From Lachnospiraceae bacterium (lineage in GTDB: Bacteria > Bacillota > Clostridia > Lachnospirales > Lachnospiraceae): a stretch of 53,742 bases of DNA. The notes beneath the pieces were generated by a model. It did not search any database and was not told the origin of the DNA. It worked only from the letters and a program-made list of their open reading frames with translations. The first letter of the stretch is position 1; every line of letters begins with the position of its first letter. Where the stretch lies: contig JAFTAP010000069.1 of assembly GCA_017455525.1 (NCBI GenBank), positions 1 to 53,742 of the forward strand. The letters run 5' to 3'. The position numbers were made by a program, and so were the translations under genes. Positions 2,850 through 35,443 of this stretch are shown here, piece after piece.

Positions 2850-3791
2850 ATGGAAATCAAGGCAGTGAAATTCAGAAAAGACGGATTTTATACGCAGCCG
2901 ATGGTATTCGGCGGAGAGGAAGGGGCTGACAAATTCGATCCGTCCGTCAGGTACCGGGGAAGCATGCAGAATTATCTGATCGACACGGGAGATGAGGTTA
3001 TTCTCGTGGATACAGGATTTCCTGCGGGAACTCCGGAGGAGAAGCCTGATGAGAAGAGCATGGGCTTCACGGGGAAAGACATCTGCACATATATGGAGGC
3101 TTTTGCGGCGTTAGGGTATAAGCCGGAGCAGGTTACGAGGATATTGCTTACCCACAGGCATGCCGACCATTCGGGAGAATTGAAGTCTTTTCCGAATGCG
3201 AAGATATACGTTAATAAGGACGAATTATCCGCCGATGAGCTGAAGGGAATAAATAATATCGTTCCGGTTGAATTCACTGATGGGGCATATTATAACTTCC
3301 CTGAAAGCCAGAAGATCTGTGACAATATTTATTTTATCAAGGCAAAGGGACATACTAACGGCAACAGCATTGTGATAGTGGAGCTTGAAGGTCTGTTTTA
3401 TATGCTTCATGGGGACATCTCATATGTAGACGAGGCGATTTATGAGGATAAGCTCTCCGTTGTCTTTGATGATCTTGCATCTGCCAGGGAGACTCAGGAT
3501 CGCGTGCGTGAATTCATCAGGAATCACCCGACAGTATACTGCGGTACGCATACGCCGCAGGGCTATGAGAATCTGGAAGCGAAGCGTGTGATGGATCTCG
3601 ATAACCCTGTTCCGACTGTCTTTGCAGAGGTTGATTTTAGCGGGAATGAGGCTAGCGGGAAATATGTATGCTCCGTGTGCGGATATGTCTATGATCCGGC
3701 GGAGAATGACGGCGTGGCTTTTGAGGATCTGCCGGACGATTGGAAGTGCCCGCGCTGCAAGCAGGGTAAAGAGAAGTTTAACAAGGCCTAG
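2850..3791 (+). CDS. Metallo-beta-lactamase-fold protein fused to rubredoxin
   Basis: The 313-residue protein has two parts. Residues about 1-255 are a metallo-beta-lactamase fold with the metal-binding THRHADHSG motif near residue 101, a later GHTNGN and HGD, and a final GTHTP. Residues about 262-313 are a rubredoxin with C274-x2-C277 and C300-x2-C303 in [10 protein letters not shown]...[18 protein letters not shown] proteins carrying electron-transfer domains include flavodiiron oxygen/NO reductases, but there is no flavodoxin domain here. The usual diiron ligand pattern is only partly matched, so it may be a hydrolase-like redox protein. Rubredoxin implies reduction by an NAD(P)H:rubredoxin reductase. 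The start follows AAAGGAG. The role in oxygen defence is inferred. Confidence 0.85.
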
Positions 3792-30066: not shown

Positions 30067-30117
30067 TTGAGAGCCATTATTATTCACATTTACAATGTAT
30101 AAATAATGTGTTACATT
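30067..30117 (+). promoter_or_regulatory. Promoter and operator-like palindrome of the toxin-antitoxin operon
   Basis: TTGAGA (30067-30072) and TACAAT (30091-30096) with an 18-base spacer, followed by the palindrome AATGT-gtt-ACATT (30105-30117) before the RelB ribosome site. Type II operons are usually autorepressed by the antitoxin at such sites. The rest of the gap at 29784-30138 holds a small ACTCCT...AGGAGT hairpin near 29949. Confidence 0.5.
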
Positions 30118-30138
30118 AATCATACAAGGAGGTACGGT

Positions 30139-30396
30139 ATGAGTAGCACGATCACTGTAAGAGTAGAAGAAAAGGTAAAGAAGGCAGCAAATGATGTTTT
30201 TAAGGAAGTAGGAATGGACATGTCAACAGCTATAAATGTATATCTAAAGCAGGTCATCCGAAGCAATGGGATCCCCTTTACCGTATCGGCTGATATTCCT
30301 AACGAAGTAACAATAAAGGCGATAAAAGCCGCTGAACAAGGCGAAATGGCTTCTTTTTCATCCATAGATGAGCTTATGGAGGATCTTAATGATTAA
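30139..30396 (+). CDS. RelB/DinJ-family antitoxin
   Basis: The 85-residue protein has the ribbon-helix-helix start typical of RelB/DinJ antitoxins (STITVRVEEKVKKAANDVFKEVGMDMSTAINVYLKQVI) and the linker GIPFTVS. Its C-terminus would wrap the toxin. AAGGAGG precedes the ATG at 30139; a longer frame from 30106 is unsupported. It overlaps the toxin gene by eight bases, the usual translational coupling, and the upstream palindrome probably serves autoregulation. Confidence 0.92.
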   Translation: MSSTITVRVEEKVKKAANDVFKEVGMDMSTAINVYLKQVIRSNGIPFTVSADIPNEVTIKAIKAAEQGEMASFSSIDELMEDLND

Positions 30397-30670
30397 AGAA
30401 ATAAAGCGTACAGCTCAGTTCAAGAAGGATTATAAAAAGGCTATAAAAAACGGATGCAACGAAGAGGATTTTAAGGAGGCACTGAAGTACCTGGTTAAGC
30501 AAAAGCCTCTTCCTGCTATATACCGGGATCATCTTTTACAGGATTCCAAGGATTACAAGAATGTCAGGGAATGTCATATATACCCGGACTGGCTGTTGGT
30601 CTACAGGATTAATAAATCAGAGCTTATTCTTGAATTGATCCGAACAGGAACCCATAGTGAGTTATTTTAG
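30389..30670 (+). CDS. YafQ-family mRNA interferase toxin
   Basis: The 93-residue protein has the RelE/YafQ fold signature: KRTAQFKKDYKKAIKNG, LLQDSKDYKNVRECHIYPDWLLVYRI and the closing ELIRTGTHSELF. YafQ cleaves mRNA in the ribosome A site; the conserved His residues in ECHIYPDW and TGTHSELF correspond to those near its active site. The start at 30389 is set by GGAGG inside the antitoxin gene. It is encoded directly after its antitoxin. Confidence 0.92.
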   Translation: MIKEIKRTAQFKKDYKKAIKNGCNEEDFKEALKYLVKQKPLPAIYRDHLLQDSKDYKNVRECHIYPDWLLVYRINKSELILELIRTGTHSELF

Positions 30671-30695
30671 GTATTATCAGGGAGGAATACGACAC

Positions 30696-31022
30696 ATGAA
30701 ACTTGCAGATATCTCGAATAAATTCGAGGAAAAACTTGAAGACAGAAAGGAATTGGAACATCTGCTGGGATTAAACGAAACGCTGAATGTATATGAACAT
30801 GACGGAATAGTTTATATTCAGTTGGGCCACAGCACTGGCAATGGCGCGGTGATATCAAAATCCCCTATTGAATTTGATCGTGAATACAATCATGTAGCGC
30901 AGACCATTTTTGACAGGGGTTTGAAATGCCTGACTGTCAATAATGACAGCTATGATACTGACAACAAGGTGTCTGTAAAGGAATTGATCGGAATGTTAAA
31001 GGCAGAATTATCGAGTCATTAA
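30696..31022 (+). CDS. Hypothetical protein after the toxin-antitoxin pair
   Basis: The 108-residue protein starts with MKLADISNKFEEKLEDRKELEHLLG after GGGAGG, 25 bases past the toxin stop. It has no membrane segment or metal motif; HDGIVYIQLGHSTGNGAV hints at a beta-rich core. I do not recognise it. It ends before a clear terminator at 31108, so it is probably the third gene of the toxin-antitoxin operon, or simply a passenger. Confidence 0.55.
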   Translation: MKLADISNKFEEKLEDRKELEHLLGLNETLNVYEHDGIVYIQLGHSTGNGAVISKSPIEFDREYNHVAQTIFDRGLKCLTVNNDSYDTDNKVSVKELIGMLKAELSSH

Positions 31023-31107
31023 CGATTTTATAAAACGTAATCCGGGAAGAAGTATAAGCGGAAACTCGAATAGATACTAACTGAATACAGCGCAAGATAA
31101 TTAAGGG

Positions 31108-31148
31108 CGCAGCATTGATGGATTTTTATCTCTGCTGTGCCTTTTTCA
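31108..31148 (+). terminator. Terminator of the toxin-antitoxin operon
   Basis: GGCGCAGCA pairs with TGCTGTGCC (one G-T pair) and is followed by TTTTTC. Nothing else is seen in 31149-31284. Confidence 0.7.
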
Positions 31149-31284
31149 TTTTAAATTTTCAATCGTAACGGTGGCAACAGAAAAGGTTATTATTTGATAA
31201 AATATAAATTAAGACAGGAATGCGAATAAATGTTCGACAACATAGTCCGTTTTAATGGACAGTATATGTAGTAGGATTTAAGTC

Positions 31285-31770
31285 ATGAAAAAAATCAAGA
31301 CTGTAGCACTCATAGGACTCGGTGCGATAGGCGCATATTTTGCAGACAGCATACTGCCTGTGCTAGGGGATAATCTTAGGGTAATTGCTGGCGGGGAGCG
31401 TAAGAAACGTCTGGCAGAAGAAGGGCTTATCGTCAATGGGAAACAGGAATTTTACAATGTAACAGCACCTGACGAAGACACAGGATTTGCTGACTTGATT
31501 ATTATTACGACGAAAATCACCGGATTGAGGCAGGCATTGGAAGAGGTGAGGCTTCAAGTCGGTCTTGATACTCTCATACTTGCTCCTCTTAATGGCGTTG
31601 AGAGTGAAGATATTACTGCGTCAGTATACGGATGGGACAAAGTGCTTTATTCGCTTATGAGGGTAAGCAGCGTAAAGGACGGAAATCGGGTTACATTCGA
31701 CCCTAAAACTTCGCACGTAGAGTTTGGTGAAAAAATAAGGCTGTCTCATTTTAAATTTCTCTTGTTATGA
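31285..31770 (+). pseudogene. Truncated 2-dehydropantoate 2-reductase (panE/apbA-like)
   Basis: The frame encodes the N-terminal Rossmann part of a ketopantoate-reductase-like protein (VALIGLGAIGAYFADS, then LIIITTKIT and LAPLNGVESED). It breaks at FGEK and ends with an unrelated tail IRLSHFKFLLL. Family members have about 300 residues; the catalytic C-terminal domain is absent here. The break falls at AAGGCTGTCTCATTTT, a sequence resembling insertion-sequence ends, but no transposase is seen. The product is probably nonfunctional. The ribosome site is unclear. Confidence 0.75.
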
Positions 31771-31802
31771 CGGGATAAAAATATTATAATGATTTTAGGA
31801 GA

Positions 31803-32013
31803 GCGGACGGCATTCCGCTGATGTGACTGACATTCTTAATCCGAAATAAGTGCAGGACGAATGAGCCTGAGGTTGGCAGGCAACGATAAAACCTGATAAG
31901 TGCAGGACGAATGGGCCTGAGGTTGGCGGACAACGATAAAATCAGTCATTAAAGGAGGCGCATGGCACTATGGTGTTGTGGTCTCCTTTTAAATTTGTTT
32001 CCTAGGAGCAGAA
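31803..32013 (+). ncRNA. Structured leader: tandem 50-nt repeat, closing stem and terminator
   Basis: Before the PBECR4-HAD gene lie a hairpin (AGCGGA...TCCGCT), then TGACTGA (31824-31830) pairing with TCAGTCA (31942-31948) around two nearly identical 50-nt units (31846-31895 and 31896-31945; three differences in the first 46 bases). Then comes a hairpin AAAGGAG (31951-31957)/CTCCTTT (31983-31989) with a long paired interior. The CTCCT of that hairpin could instead pair with the AGGAG of the gene's ribosome site (about 32004-32008). This layout is riboswitch-like, but I match it to no known class. Confidence 0.5.
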
Positions 32014-33459
32014 ATGAAGAAGGAAGATGCGTTAAGGATCATATTTGCTTGTGCAGAGGAATATAAGGAAAATCTGGCGAACAGGAATCTTTTGTTCATA
32101 TGCGCCAATAGTGCAATGAAGACAACTGCTATTGAGACTGTATTTGGGGTTGGGAATTTTCTTCATATGACCGGAGTGAAGTTTAGGAAGGGAAGGGAGA
32201 TATCTGCAAACGGCTTTTATAGGCGATGTGTTGATAAGAGACTCACTCTGAACGACTTTGATATGGCAAAAGACGGAACCACAGATTTGAAACTTGAGGT
32301 GCTGCCTATATGCGTAAAGGCTAATATTTCTGCAAACATGGCGGGAAATTATAACGGGTTAAGACCATATTTATATACGGAAAAGCTTGTGGGAGGCGTA
32401 AGGGGTGGAATAGGGTTCGTCTATGATGAAAAGAGAGGTCTTTATGCACCTAATACCATACTCAATGAGGACATAAGAAAGATAACTGACGAAAAAATCC
32501 GTATAATAGCTACTTACAGGAAAAGTACAAAAGAAAGTGAATATTCTGAGTATGTTTATATGGCAAAAAAGCTGGACTGGTCAAAAATGAGATATCCAGA
32601 AGCATATCATAACCTTCAGCCGCAACTGTATGAGGATAAAGAGAAGCAAGATAGAAATTGGAGTAATGGAATAAGGCTTGCTGTATCAGACCTTGACGGA
32701 TGCCTGCTTGACGGGGAGGGGAAACTTCCTAATGACTTTTCTGATGTACTGAAGGCCATGGAAAAAAGAGGGGTTTTATTTGCGGCAGCCAGCGGCAGGT
32801 CGATAATCGGCTCACGCATGGCGTTCGGTACATTCTCTGATTCTATTGCATTTATTACGGACAATGGCGCAAGGGTTTTTAAGGACGGGCGGAATATATA
32901 CAACCGCATCCTTCCGTATGAGGAATACAGTGATGTAATAAAGGAGATGCGGCGGCATGAGGGGCTTCTTGCCGTTGCATGCGGGACAGAGGGGGCATGG
33001 GTTGAAGATAAGAGCGTGATCACTCTTGAGATGGAGCGGGAGCTTTCAAAATACTATCCGGAATATCACGAATGCAGCTTTGACAGCATACCCGATCAGA
33101 TAATCAAATTCGCACTCTTATATTTCGACGATATAGAAAAGAATATCTATCCCTTTTTTCAGAAGTATGACAATGACAGGATCTGCGTGCAGGTAACGGC
33201 TTTCGTATGGCTGGATATATATGAGAAGGGCATATCGAAGGGACTTGGGATAGAAGCCCTTCAAAGGGAGCTAGGCATATCCCCGAAGGAGACAATCGTA
33301 TTCGGAGATTATCTGAATGACATTCCTATGGCAGATTTTGCAGTCAGATCCTACGCTCCGGAAAATGCTCATGAAAAAGTAAAGGAATGCTTCACGGAAA
33401 CCATAAGATCAAATACGGAATCAAGCGTCACGAATAAAATCATAGAGCTGATAAATTAG
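32014..33459 (+). CDS. PBECR4-like domain fused to Cof-type HAD phosphatase
   Basis: The 481-residue protein has two parts. Residues about 1-170 look like PBECR4, a phage-associated member of the barnase/EndoU/colicin/RelE-like nuclease superfamily: VGNFLHMTGV, ANGFYRRCVDKRLTLNDFDM, GLRPYLYTEKLVGG and FVYDEKRGLYAPNTILNEDIR. Residues about 221-481 are an intact Cof/HAD-IIB phosphatase: SDLDGCLLD, AASGRS, the Lys region of KGISKGLGIEAL and FGDYLNDIPM. A predicted RNase-like domain joined to a phosphatase suggests nucleotide or RNA processing, possibly toxin plus end-healing or detoxification. TAGGAG lies six bases before the ATG. Catalytic residues of the first domain are not assigned. Confidence 0.75.
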   Translation: MKKEDALRIIFACAEEYKENLANRNLLFICANSAMKTTAIETVFGVGNFLHMTGVKFRKGREISANGFYRRCVDKRLTLNDFDMAKDGTTDLKLEVLPICVKANISANMAGNYNGLRPYLYTEKLVGGVRGGIGFVYDEKRGLYAPNTILNEDIRKITDEKIRIIATYRKSTKESEYSEYVYMAKKLDWSKMRYPEAYHNLQPQLYEDKEKQDRNWSNGIRLAVSDLDGCLLDGEGKLPNDFSDVLKAMEKRGVLFAAASGRSIIGSRMAFGTFSDSIAFITDNGARVFKDGRNIYNRILPYEEYSDVIKEMRRHEGLLAVACGTEGAWVEDKSVITLEMERELSKYYPEYHECSFDSIPDQIIKFALLYFDDIEKNIYPFFQKYDNDRICVQVTAFVWLDIYEKGISKGLGIEALQRELGISPKETIVFGDYLNDIPMADFAVRSYAPENAHEKVKECFTETIRSNTESSVTNKIIELIN

Positions 33460-33487: not shown

Positions 33488-33841
33488 ATGGTCAGAAGGA
33501 GTGAGGAAATAAAGGAGCGGAGAGTGCAGAATGCGCAGGGCGGGGACAACGAGGTAATATTTTATGACTGGCTCCTGCCGGATGAGGCCAAAGGACACGG
33601 CAGAGTGTTCAGCAAGGTGGTCATTCCACCCGGAGCGTCCATAGGTTATCATGAGCACAGCGGAGAATTCGAGGCATACTATGTTCTGTCAGGGGAAGCG
33701 ACCGTGGATGATAATGGGAAAGAAGTCATCCTTAAGCCCGGAGACATGAATCTCTGCAAGGACGGCTGTGGTCACAGTACCAGGAATAACGGCACGGAGG
33801 ATCTGGTGCTGATGGCGCTTATCATGAATACCTTGGGGTAG
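33488..33841 (+). CDS. Cupin-domain protein
   Basis: The 117-residue protein is a single cupin barrel: the first motif GYHEHSGEFEAYYVLSG supplies His, His and Glu metal ligands, and the second motif is KPGDMNLCKDGCGHS with a His. The substrate is unknown; small cupins of this type are often sugar isomerase-like or binding proteins. AAGGAGG precedes the ATG. It follows the PBECR4-HAD gene by 28 bases and may share its transcript. Confidence 0.85.
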   Translation: MVRRSEEIKERRVQNAQGGDNEVIFYDWLLPDEAKGHGRVFSKVVIPPGASIGYHEHSGEFEAYYVLSGEATVDDNGKEVILKPGDMNLCKDGCGHSTRNNGTEDLVLMALIMNTLG

Positions 33842-34093: not shown

Positions 34094-35443
34094 ATGATGG
34101 AAAGGCTGGTTTTAGAACAGTTTAAGGTCTGGAAGAATAAAGCTGGAAGCAAGAGAAAGCCCCTGCTGATCACCGGGGTGCGTCAATGTGGCAAGACTTA
34201 TATAATAAAGAATTTCGGTGAGACTGAGTTTGAGGATATGGCTTACTTCAATTTCGATGGTAACGCCGGACTTCAATCCGTATTTGATTATGATTTTGAT
34301 ACGAAAAGAATAATCGATGAGCTTGGAAGCATTATATTTGGAAAGGCTATCGAGCCGGGGAAAACATTGGTAGTGTTTGATGAAATACAGGACTGTCCGA
34401 GGGCGATCCAGTCACTGAAATACTTTTGCGAAGAAATGCCAGAGCTTCATATTATAGCCGCAGGTTCGCTATTAGGCGTAGCTTTGAAGGATGAGGGAAT
34501 ATCTTTTCCTGTAGGCAAGGTGGAGAGAATCAATATGCATCCCATGAATTTTGAAGAGTTCGTGAGGGCTGATGGAGGCGGGAAATATATCGACGGACTT
34601 AAGAAACTGCCGCTTGAAAGGGAGATTCCGGAGCTTTACACTGTTCCTCTTGAGAAGTACTTAAAAAACTATTATATAGTTGGCGGGATGCCGGAGGCCG
34701 TCAGGACATGGGCTGAAACACATGATTATAGGGAAGTTGAAGTTATTCAGGATAATATTCTAAGAGATTATGCGGATGATTTCTCAAAGCATACCACCCC
34801 GGAGACGGCAATCAAGATCCGTATGATATGGGATTCTATTCCCTCACAGATATCAAGGGAAAACAATAAGTTCATTTTTTCACATGTGAAGCAGGGGGCA
34901 AGATCAAAGGATCTTGAAGATGCATTAGAATGGCTCGTGAACGCCGATATTGCCGGCAAACTTTGTATGGTACCGACTCCGGAGATACCATTATCCGGAA
35001 AGGCTGATTATACATACTTTAAGGTATATATGTCAGATGTGGGGCTTTTGAGGAGAAAGTCAAACTTAAACTATAGGACGATTCTTGAGGGAAACGAGGC
35101 CTATATTCACTATAAAGGAGCGATAGCTGAAAATTATGTTTACAGTCAGCTAAAATCCATGGGTATTGATAGTTATTTCTGGAGAGCCAAGTCCGATGCG
35201 GAACTGGATTTCATTACTGACTATGAAGGCGTTCTTGTGCCTGTTGAAACAAAATCGGCGGATAATACCAAGGCCAAGAGCCTGCATCAGTTCTGCAGCA
35301 GATACAAACCGAAAATGGCAATAAAGTCGTCCTTGAAAAATGTTGGCGATAATCTGGACGGAGAGACCCACGTTTGGTCGATTCCCTTATATACACTGTT
35401 TAGGTTTAAGGAATACGTATATAAGGAAATGGAATGGGATTAG
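34094..35443 (+). CDS. AAA ATPase with DUF4143
   Basis: The 449-residue protein has Walker A GVRQCGKT (about 27-34), Walker B TLVVFDEIQDCP, the sensor-like IIAAGSLLGVAL and the DUF4143 C-terminal region. The late segment SDAELDFITDYEGVLVPVETKS is a restriction-nuclease-like core. This is a second prokaryotic ATPase family with the same general plan as the DUF234 protein at 6933. Such proteins are common, mobile and of unknown function, sometimes linked to toxins. ATGATG at 34094 or 34097 could be used; the ribosome site is unclear. Confidence 0.9.
   Translation: MMERLVLEQFKVWKNKAGSKRKPLLITGVRQCGKTYIIKNFGETEFEDMAYFNFDGNAGLQSVFDYDFDTKRIIDELGSIIFGKAIEPGKTLVVFDEIQDCPRAIQSLKYFCEEMPELHIIAAGSLLGVALKDEGISFPVGKVERINMHPMNFEEFVRADGGGKYIDGLKKLPLEREIPELYTVPLEKYLKNYYIVGGMPEAVRTWAETHDYREVEVIQDNILRDYADDFSKHTTPETAIKIRMIWDSIPSQISRENNKFIFSHVKQGARSKDLEDALEWLVNADIAGKLCMVPTPEIPLSGKADYTYFKVYMSDVGLLRRKSNLNYRTILEGNEAYIHYKGAIAENYVYSQLKSMGIDSYFWRAKSDAELDFITDYEGVLVPVETKSADNTKAKSLHQFCSRYKPKMAIKSSLKNVGDNLDGETHVWSIPLYTLFRFKEYVYKEMEWD

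What the first reader, a model, noticed from the sequence alone, without database searches (positions are those of the whole stretch)
32014..33459. PBECR4-like nuclease domain fused to a Cof-type HAD phosphatase
Seen: an N-terminal ~170-residue region with PBECR4-like phrases (VGNFLHMTGV, GLRPYLYTEKLVGG, APNTILNEDIR) and an intact four-motif HAD-IIB domain in one frame. Known: PBECR proteins are predicted phage-linked RNases of the barnase/EndoU/colicin/RelE superfamily; HAD-IIB enzymes are phosphatases of sugars and nucleotides. Inferred: a two-step nucleic-acid or nucleotide enzyme, possibly a toxin with built-in detoxifying or end-processing activity. The locus sits in an accessory island with RelB/YafQ and a DUF4143 ATPase.
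Basis: partly seen in the sequence, partly recalled or inferred. Interest (0 to 1): 0.75.

Follow-up and report, generated by a model that had tools for sequence, protein, structure and literature searches.

The report
RNA-controlled toxin fused to a phosphatase
A predicted RNA-cutting bacterial toxin, here joined to a sugar-phosphatase-like protein, is preceded by a folded repeat RNA that very probably keeps the toxin switched off.

Summary
The fusion is real as assembled. Window 32014-33459 encodes 481 residues: a full PBECR4 domain (Pfam, 92.3 bits, residues 9-185) and a complete HAD-IIB phosphatase domain (224-476). The larger finding lies just upstream. At 31797-31997 there is a promoter-like site, a structured RNA with two 50-nt repeats, a terminator-like hairpin, then the gene: the layout of type III toxin-antitoxin systems.

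The RNA is not peculiar to this window. A covariance model finds it upstream of 77 of 80 PBECR4 loci from named genomes, and its helices covary. The 'tag' of each repeat pairs with the hairpin loop of the other: 58 of 61 RNAs have all eight cross-repeat pairs, against 3 of 61 for within-repeat pairing. No Rfam family reaches its score on it. Some divergent PBECR4 genes carry other RNAs, including Rfam's drum RNA.

I propose that solo PBECR4 proteins are toxins of an unrecognised type III-like system. The HAD fusion looks accidental: 1 of 48 genus genomes, standalone HAD siblings, and an independent PBECR4-RimI fusion.

The parts
31762..31790 (+). promoter-like site TTGTTA-17-TATAAT before the RNA
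   Evidence: 10 of 12 matches; shuffles give a mean of 1.1 such sites, so weak by itself; a similar TTGACA/TATAAT-like stretch is seen by eye before the RNA in many homologous loci
31797..31997 (+). structured leader RNA with its terminator (putative antitoxin, class I); start inferred from the -10 box
   Evidence: CM R1 match 31819-31954, 115 bits (the window RNA is one of the 19 used to build R1); folds better than 200 of 200 shuffles, z -2.78; covariation; no Rfam family reaches its gathering score here (one chance-level snoRNA match at 31876-31916, 15.5 bits against 50)
31846..31941 (+). tandem repeats, period 50, 1.9 copies, 93% match
31825..31830 (+). loop of the first hairpin (GACTGA), pairs with 31942-31947 (TCAGTC)
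   Evidence: sequence; outer helix (five pairs counted) paired in 100% of cells in A2 and A4
31840..31843 (+). tag of repeat 1 (TCCG), pairs with the loop of repeat 2
31877..31880 (+). loop of repeat 1 hairpin (CAGG), pairs with the tag of repeat 2
31892..31895 (+). tag of repeat 2 (CCTG)
31927..31930 (+). loop of repeat 2 hairpin (CGGA), pairs with the tag of repeat 1
31951..31989 (+). terminator-like hairpin between RNA and gene
   Evidence: one search finds the inner part (31961-31980; shuffles give a mean of 0.4 such sites); folds a 17-bp stem followed by T-rich sequence
32004..32008 (+). ribosome-binding-site-like AGGAG
32014..32655 (+). PBECR4 nuclease domain (residues 1-214): putative toxin; H51, K93 and T148 conserved
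32665..33456 (+). Cof-like HAD-IIB phosphatase domain (residues 218-481), fused in frame
33488..33841 (+). small cupin gene next to the HAD; a cupin-like gene (by eye) also adjoins the standalone HAD in L050

Best explanation
The locus is a type III-like toxin-antitoxin module whose toxin has become fused to a downstream host gene. A leader RNA made of two pseudoknot-forming repeats is transcribed in excess because a terminator sits before the gene. Read-through gives a little mRNA for the PBECR4 protein, a predicted metal-independent RNase with H51 and T148, probably also K93, at its active site. The folded RNA binds the protein and blocks it. The two repeats are locked to each other: the tag of each pairs with the loop of the other, so that, processed or not, they form one closed RNA unit that could hold two toxin molecules. 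If the RNA falls away (phage shut-off of transcription, loss of the module), the longer-lived RNase is freed and stops growth. The HAD domain is an ordinary Cof-like sugar or nucleotide phosphatase whose gene start lay just behind the toxin gene and was captured by an in-frame join; it is probably not part of the toxin mechanism. Shown by computation: domains, conserved residues, RNA linkage, covariation, cross-repeat pairing, rarity of the fusion. Inferred: RNase activity, RNA-protein binding, toxicity, neutralisation, the accidental nature of the fusion.
For: 1. Linkage: model R1 finds the RNA upstream, on the same strand and mostly within about 200 nt (L110 about 375 nt), in 77 of 80 PBECR4 loci from genome contigs; by my length and stop rule 64 of 66 intact and 13 of 14 broken or partial. 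Of the three misses, L121 has 20 nt and L133 198 nt of upstream contig, and L183 is partial. 2. In the first set (window plus 44 loci) R1 hits 32 of 45 (19 of these built the model). Of the other 13, four have drum RNA, one of them below Rfam's score; five have repeats of about 32 nt; three have another leader with a terminator by eye (L014, L045, L046); one is cut by its contig (L039). 3. Structure: A2 92.2% of cells paired (0 of 500 shuffles), covariation 0.405 against 0.194. On 61 RNAs from loci not in A2, the loop-tag pairs, which are not in the model, are 99.4% paired, and 58 of 61 rows have 8 of 8 Watson-Crick cross-repeat pairs. 4. Asymmetry: of 30 RNA loci kept (of 45 places), 10 have an intact toxin, 10 a broken or truncated one and 10 none; an intact class I toxin without the RNA was not seen where upstream sequence sufficed (L133 unresolved). 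5. Toxin-like behaviour: frequent broken copies; relatives on 80 plasmid records, 56 typed conjugative (76 of the 80 are Enterococcus). 6. Layout matches the type III definition (passages of PMC5086642; PMC12373285). 7. Fusion incidental: 1 of 48 genus genomes, standalone HADs at 59-67%, and an independent PBECR4-RimI fusion between tsaB and rnz.
Against: No experiment. A leader RNA before a gene could also be a cis-acting attenuator. The repeats number about two and have diverged: Tandem Repeats Finder flags such an array in only 6 of the 30 upstream stretches. ToxI is given 34-36 nt repeated 2.8 to 5.5 times (passage of PMC12373285), though CptI and TenpI are given 2.1. The known type III repeats are described as individual pseudoknots, whereas class I pairs across repeats. 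Broken toxins and orphan RNAs come largely from draft or MAG assemblies. A4 includes near-identical RNAs, so its counts are not independent events. One intact toxin (L133) shows no RNA in the 198 nt available. L072 and L075 have leaders I did not classify. The fusion rests on a single assembly.
Confidence: 0.78

Rival explanations
1. The leader RNA is a cis-regulator (attenuator or riboswitch) that sets read-through into PBECR4; it does not bind the protein. PBECR4 may be a defence or housekeeping RNase.
For: It lies in cis before a terminator-like hairpin; pseudoknots are common in riboswitches (recalled).
Against: The RNA, with a terminator-like hairpin by eye, is kept where no PBECR4 gene was detected behind it: 10 of 30 loci. 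Divergent PBECR4 genes carry unrelated RNAs in the same place, which suits co-evolving RNA-protein partners better than one sensed ligand. The two repeats pair reciprocally.
Confidence: 0.15
2. The fusion is a selected bifunctional enzyme: PBECR4 cuts RNA and the HAD trims phosphates or removes a toxic product.
For: Both parts look catalytically intact; the frame is clean.
Against: 1 of 48 genus genomes. Among 66 genome-contig loci intact by my rule, one has a tail over 72 residues and it is RimI, not HAD; L157 runs off its contig and could not be measured. Cof-type HADs act on sugar and nucleotide phosphates (recalled).
Confidence: 0.1
3. The fusion is an assembly or sequencing artefact at the junction; two separate genes overlap in reality.
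For: Single contig of an unnamed 110-contig assembly; close siblings of both halves are separate.
Against: As assembled there is no in-frame start at the HAD beginning, and a similar in-frame capture of another gene exists in L153, itself also a MAG contig.
Confidence: 0.2
4. PBECR4 is a phage effector, as in the original description of PBECR domains in polyvalent and injected proteins; the chromosomal copies are prophage debris.
For: PBECR was defined from phage polyvalent proteins, with solo versions noted (passages of PMC5512222). Two phage records and two IMG/VR contigs (L186, L187) hold the gene with the RNA upstream.
Against: Only 2 of 50,697 phage records match the L034 protein, against 80 of 72,556 plasmid records. 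No virion gene is named among the neighbours.
Confidence: 0.05

Closest known systems
Type III toxin-antitoxin systems ToxIN, CptIN, TenpIN
   Same: Tandem-repeat pseudoknot RNA, terminator, then a predicted endoRNase gene; on plasmids and chromosomes. CptI is a 45-nt unit in a 2:2 complex (passages of PMC4627078), and repeat length and number here (about 50 nt, about two) are close to CptI and TenpI (passage of PMC12373285).
   Different: PBECR4 matches no solved type III toxin by sequence, and the solved ones share a fold with Kid (passages). Class I repeats pair across repeats rather than within one.
AbiF with its abiF RNA (RCd22)
   Same: A conserved RNA motif before a toxin gene that was shown to neutralise the toxin by direct binding; two motifs (abstract and passages of PMC12373285).
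   Different: AbiF is an Abi_2 protein with HEPN similarity; different RNA.
AvcID (deaminase toxin with RNA antitoxin)
   Same: Called a type III system, with a toxin of another kind (abstract of PMC10511110 in the search listing).
   Different: Deoxycytidylate deaminase, not an RNase.
Pfam PBECR4 / PBECR domains
   Same: Domain match over the whole profile; H and S/T active-site pair as described (passages of PMC5512222).
   Different: Described as phage and polyvalent-protein RNases; no RNA partner is mentioned in the passages I read.
Rfam drum RNA RF02958
   Same: Lies directly upstream of divergent PBECR4 genes in the same layout.
   Different: Not the RNA of the window; I found no stated function for it (passage).
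BECR toxins of the RelE/ParE superfamily
   Same: Same predicted fold class; multidomain toxins are known (outline and abstract of PMC11980606).
   Different: Those are described as type II toxins with protein antitoxins.

Membership tests
PBECR4 (PF18813) | profile match above the gathering score over most of the model | tested here: met
   92.3 bits against 27, profile 1-187 of 188
[quoted passage not shown]
   H51 in 24 of 24 and 67 of 67 sequences; position 148 T in 65 and S in 2 of 67, and S or T in 24 of 24 of A1 read by eye; that these are the catalytic residues, and their place in helix and strand, is inferred
PBECR4 (PF18813) | BECR fold | not testable with these tools
   structure prediction switched off; no convincing PDB sequence relative
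Type III toxin-antitoxin (as a class) | repeat RNA gene, then terminator, then toxin gene | tested here: met
   Tandem Repeats Finder flags such an array in 6 of 30 upstream stretches, the other repeats having diverged
Type III toxin-antitoxin (as a class) | pseudoknot-forming repeats | tested here: met
   covariation of loop-tag helices; H-type pseudoknots of 7 bp in at least one copy of four of five class II RNAs
Type III toxin-antitoxin (as a class) | toxin is an endoRNase that inhibits growth | not testable with these tools
   only predicted from the domain
Type III toxin-antitoxin (as a class) | RNA neutralises the toxin by direct binding | not testable with these tools
   supported indirectly by linkage and by orphan RNAs
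ToxIN, CptIN, TenpIN families | toxin sequence similarity to ToxN, CptN or TenpN | tested here: not met
   no hit to any solved type III toxin with the protein or the profile; Pfam gives PBECR4 as the only match above its cut-off in the N-terminal half; TenpN was not compared directly
Cof-type HAD-IIB phosphatase | HAD-IIB profile and intact motifs | tested here: met
   Hydrolase_3 146.8 bits; TIGR01484 45.5 against 41.8; but the Cof subfamily model TIGR00099 scores 116.8, below its 137 cut-off; best PDB relative 1rlm, E 7.6e-22
drum RNA RF02958 | Rfam match at the window RNA | tested here: not met
   no drum match in 31000-32100 and none in the own genome

The most novel reading that the evidence does not exclude
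Solo PBECR4 proteins are a new toxin class of RNA-antitoxin systems with a fold unrelated to ToxN, and the family has recruited at least three unrelated antitoxin RNAs: the cross-repeat 'handshake' RNA found here, 32-nt H-type pseudoknot repeats, and Rfam's drum RNA, which would thereby get a function. In class I the reciprocal pairing of two non-identical repeats makes a built-in RNA dimer that cages two toxins. The modules sometimes capture the next host gene in frame (HAD here, RimI in L153), which could tie a useful gene to the module.
Probability: 0.6. Interest if true: 0.85.

Novelty: new variant of a known kind. Interest (0 to 1): 0.77.

Why it matters
Genes of this family occur on chromosomes of gut and rumen bacteria (titles) and on 80 plasmid records, 56 of them typed conjugative. 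The held library has no paper that names PBECR4, and in the passages I read on PBECR domains no RNA partner is mentioned. Reading these proteins as RNA-neutralised toxins gives a role to the family, to an RNA not in Rfam, and to an Rfam RNA for which I found no stated function (drum). The AbiF case, where a conserved RNA motif before a gene proved to be an antitoxin, shows that such a claim can be settled at the bench (PMC12373285). The cross-repeat pairing is an unusual RNA design that can be tested by mutation.

Tried and rejected
Fusion as a conserved architecture: rejected, 1 of 48 genus genomes, no other HAD tail among the measurable genome contigs frames. First protein scans of genome contigs and viral contigs with the window's sequence gave nothing, probably because the patterns used were not conserved; an alignment of six relatives worked. 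Match of the toxin to known type III toxins by sequence: none. Rfam identity for the window RNA: none. GP20-b (RF03003) for class II: only sub-threshold hits at the RNA of L017, L010 and L043 (30, 27.5 and 20 bits against 36.2), and the same model also rings below its score in two of 14 control genomes, so not claimed. Another toxin family behind the orphan RNAs: looked for by eye, various genes and no common one. Intra-repeat folding: 3 of 61 rows with 8 of 8 pairs. It still shows 83.1% of cells paired and beats its shuffles on several measures, because tags and loops are similar, but columns 79 with 145 fail in 55 of 60. The drum link is weaker in reverse: of six drum matches at or above the gathering score, four adjoin PBECR4 (G508, G004:C137, G027, G032); G548 and G004:C3 do not, the latter followed by a short frame that stops early. 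Below the score, G030 adjoins PBECR4 and G658 seems to lie in a coding region. Leaders not classified: L014, L045, L046, L072 (no Rfam match at the leader for L014, L046 and L072; L045 not scanned) and L075 (left out, so not scanned with Rfam). Window's truncated panE: an ApbA_C domain in a 327-codon open frame lies elsewhere (G000:C49).

Full report
What is there. The reported ORF is real: 32014-33459 (+), 481 aa, with a whole PBECR4 domain (PF18813, E 6.4e-26, residues 9-185) and a whole HAD phosphatase domain (PF08282, E 1.3e-42, residues 224-476). The HAD half scores best among NCBIfam models with the Cof subfamily, though below that model's cut-off, and is related to solved sugar phosphatases such as 1rlm. 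The N-terminal half has no convincing solved relative. In an alignment of 24 PBECR4 proteins six columns are invariant, among them H51 and K93, and position 148 is S or T in all 24 by eye. In a second alignment of 67 (window plus 66), H51 is 67 of 67, K93 is 66 of 67 (one X), and position 148 is T in 65 and S in 2. This fits the histidine plus S/T configuration that the PBECR description gives (passages of PMC5512222).

The fusion is rare. In 48 genomes of the genus (22 of them at least 90% complete and at most 5% contaminated) only the window's own has a match over all 481 residues (E up to 1e-25). Three have a standalone HAD in open frames of 269-279 codons at 59-67% identity, and three show only the PBECR4 half at that threshold. 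Among 397 genomes of the family 29 have a relative of the N-terminal half; the longest open frame listed there besides the window's is 304 codons. Of 80 PBECR4 loci from genome contigs (80 kept of 98 confirmed), 66 are intact by my rule (no stop inside the match, match of at least 540 nt); one of these, L153, has a tail of 153 residues, the next longest is 72, and L157 runs off its contig. In L153 PBECR4 is fused to RimI (TIGR01575, 128 bits against 86.4; PBECR4 133.6 bits). It lies behind TsaB and before ribonuclease Z, with a TsaE-like and a TsaD-like frame beyond them by eye. So two unrelated host genes were joined to PBECR4 near their own starts. I read both as accidental captures of the next gene. 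A junction in one assembly can also be an artefact; reads were not available.

The RNA. Directly upstream of the window ORF is a 50-nt tandem repeat, 1.9 copies, preceded by a promoter-like site and followed by a terminator-like hairpin. When I printed the upstream stretches of 30 PBECR4 loci, a similar leader was visible by eye in most, and some leader with a terminator-like hairpin in the rest; Tandem Repeats Finder flagged an array of this kind in only 6 of the 30, since most repeats have diverged. Nineteen were aligned (A2). The structure that I wrote by hand has 92.2% of cells paired against 80.4% in shuffles, and a covariation score of 0.405 against 0.194, with 0 of 500 shuffles as high; sliding the partners drops the score to 0.113 or less. 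One measure, further pair types, does not differ from shuffles (181 of 500 as high). A covariance model (R1) holds only the nested helices.

Test on other loci. R1 was searched in 83 loci, 80 from genome contigs and 3 viral: the RNA is upstream of PBECR4 in 77 of 80 and in 2 of 3. L106 and L135 hold a second copy, and L167 a second weaker one. I gave 60 of these 83 loci (59 genome, 1 viral) to a second search that made alignment A4, 61 RNAs. I left out loci that repeat places of A2, several near-identical ones and cut ones; some near-identical ones remain. The loop-tag pairs are not in the model, yet 99.4% of cells are paired. All eight cross-repeat pairs are Watson-Crick in 58 of 61 rows; within-repeat pairing reaches that in 3 of 61, and in 0 of the 58 rows whose two tags differ. 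The stored nested structure has 97.5% of cells paired, but A4 was fitted to it. The RNA thus has a definite design: the tag of repeat 1 pairs with the loop of repeat 2, the loop of repeat 1 pairs with the tag of repeat 2, and the first hairpin loop pairs with the 3' end.

Beyond class I. Of the window and 44 loci, R1 hits 32 of 45 (one, L041, is cut). Among the other 13, L008, L009 and L012 carry drum RNA above Rfam's gathering score and L015 just below it (39.2 against 43). L010, L017, L042, L043 and L044 carry repeats of about 32 nt; in four of these five at least one copy shows a 7-bp H-type pseudoknot by a simple complement search, and L042 shows only 3 bp. L014, L045 and L046 have another leader with a terminator-like hairpin by eye, and L039 is cut. 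In the 99 relatives searched with drum, five matches were found and four adjoin PBECR4. In 249 genomes of the phylum, three were found and one adjoins PBECR4. Of seven further loci, an E. faecium plasmid, an Erysipelothrix phage and a Streptococcus phage match R1 upstream of PBECR4; L071 and L073 have drum, and L072 and L075 stay unclassified. By eye the plasmid and the Erysipelothrix phage show the same reciprocal loops. The Erysipelothrix phage copy has a stop in the frame that I gave.

Toxin-like asymmetry. R1 found 16 RNAs in 10 of 99 relatives; ten lie beside a PBECR4 place and six do not, two of the six being weak matches (38.1 and 32.8 bits). In 397 family genomes it found RNAs in 38, at 45 listed places. 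Of the 30 loci kept, 10 have an intact PBECR4 behind the RNA, 10 a broken or truncated one, and in 10 none was detected. In the genome contigs set 64 of 66 intact genes have the RNA, and the two without it have little upstream sequence. So the RNA survives without the toxin, while an intact toxin without the RNA was not clearly seen. That is what an antitoxin predicts.

Comparison with print. Searches of the held library: 'PBECR4' no paper; 'PBECR' six papers, of which by title two concern the domain (passages read); type III searches and drum/GP20-b showed no paper in their listings whose title or abstract start links PBECR4 or drum to a toxin-antitoxin system. The library lacks most subscription journals and bioRxiv, so this is not proof of novelty. 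The review PMC5086642 (passages) lists three type III families with a shared fold; AbiF (PMC12373285, abstract and passages) and AvcID (abstract in the listing) extend the class to other proteins.

Verdict. Observation confirmed; interpretation partly supported. The thing of interest is an unrecognised RNA-toxin module, with a one-off fusion to a phosphatase. Whose genome: the same genus probably includes Lachnospiraceae bacterium NK4A144, inferred because G014:C15 and KE384177.1 have the same length, 93293, and overlapping places.

Noticed in passing
window 30106-30670: Complete RelB/YafQ-type type II toxin-antitoxin pair upstream of the island (TIGR02384, YafQ_toxin), followed at 30657-31022 by a 121-aa frame without any Pfam or NCBIfam match.
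   Followed up: partly
window 31285-31770: Truncated ketopantoate reductase (161 aa, N-terminal domain only) ending just before the RNA promoter-like site; an ApbA_C domain in a 327-codon open frame lies elsewhere in the genome (G000:C49). The sequence GGCTGTCTCATTTTAAATTT at 31739 looks to me like a mobile-element end (by eye).
   Followed up: partly
window 34094-35443: DUF4143/AAA ATPase that matches PADLOC's candidate defence family PDC-S01 at 547.7 bits, next to two toxin-antitoxin-like modules.
   Followed up: no
L008, L009, L012, L015, L071, L073: Rfam drum RNA lies directly upstream of divergent PBECR4 genes; L015 is below and L073 at the gathering score.
   Followed up: yes
L153:3220-4326: PBECR4 fused in frame to RimI (ribosomal protein S18-alanine N-acetyltransferase) between tsaB and a ribonuclease Z gene, with the class I RNA at 3031-3166.
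   Followed up: yes
L106:3297-4488: Two class I RNAs in tandem: the first before an intact PBECR4, the second before a shorter PBECR4-like frame that seems to lack an inner stretch.
   Followed up: partly
L074 (NZ_OR234015.1): PBECR4 relatives on 76 Enterococcus plasmid records; the one looked at has two 55-nt repeats upstream of the gene.
   Followed up: partly
L021/L135 and L104/L105 (G157, G460): Two class I RNAs on opposite strands about 2 kb apart, with a longer first part; the second is followed by no detected PBECR4 but by a lipoprotein-like frame.
   Followed up: no
Lactococcus lactis control genome: PF18813 also rings in one of 14 named control genomes, Lactococcus lactis; its upstream region was not looked at.
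   Followed up: no
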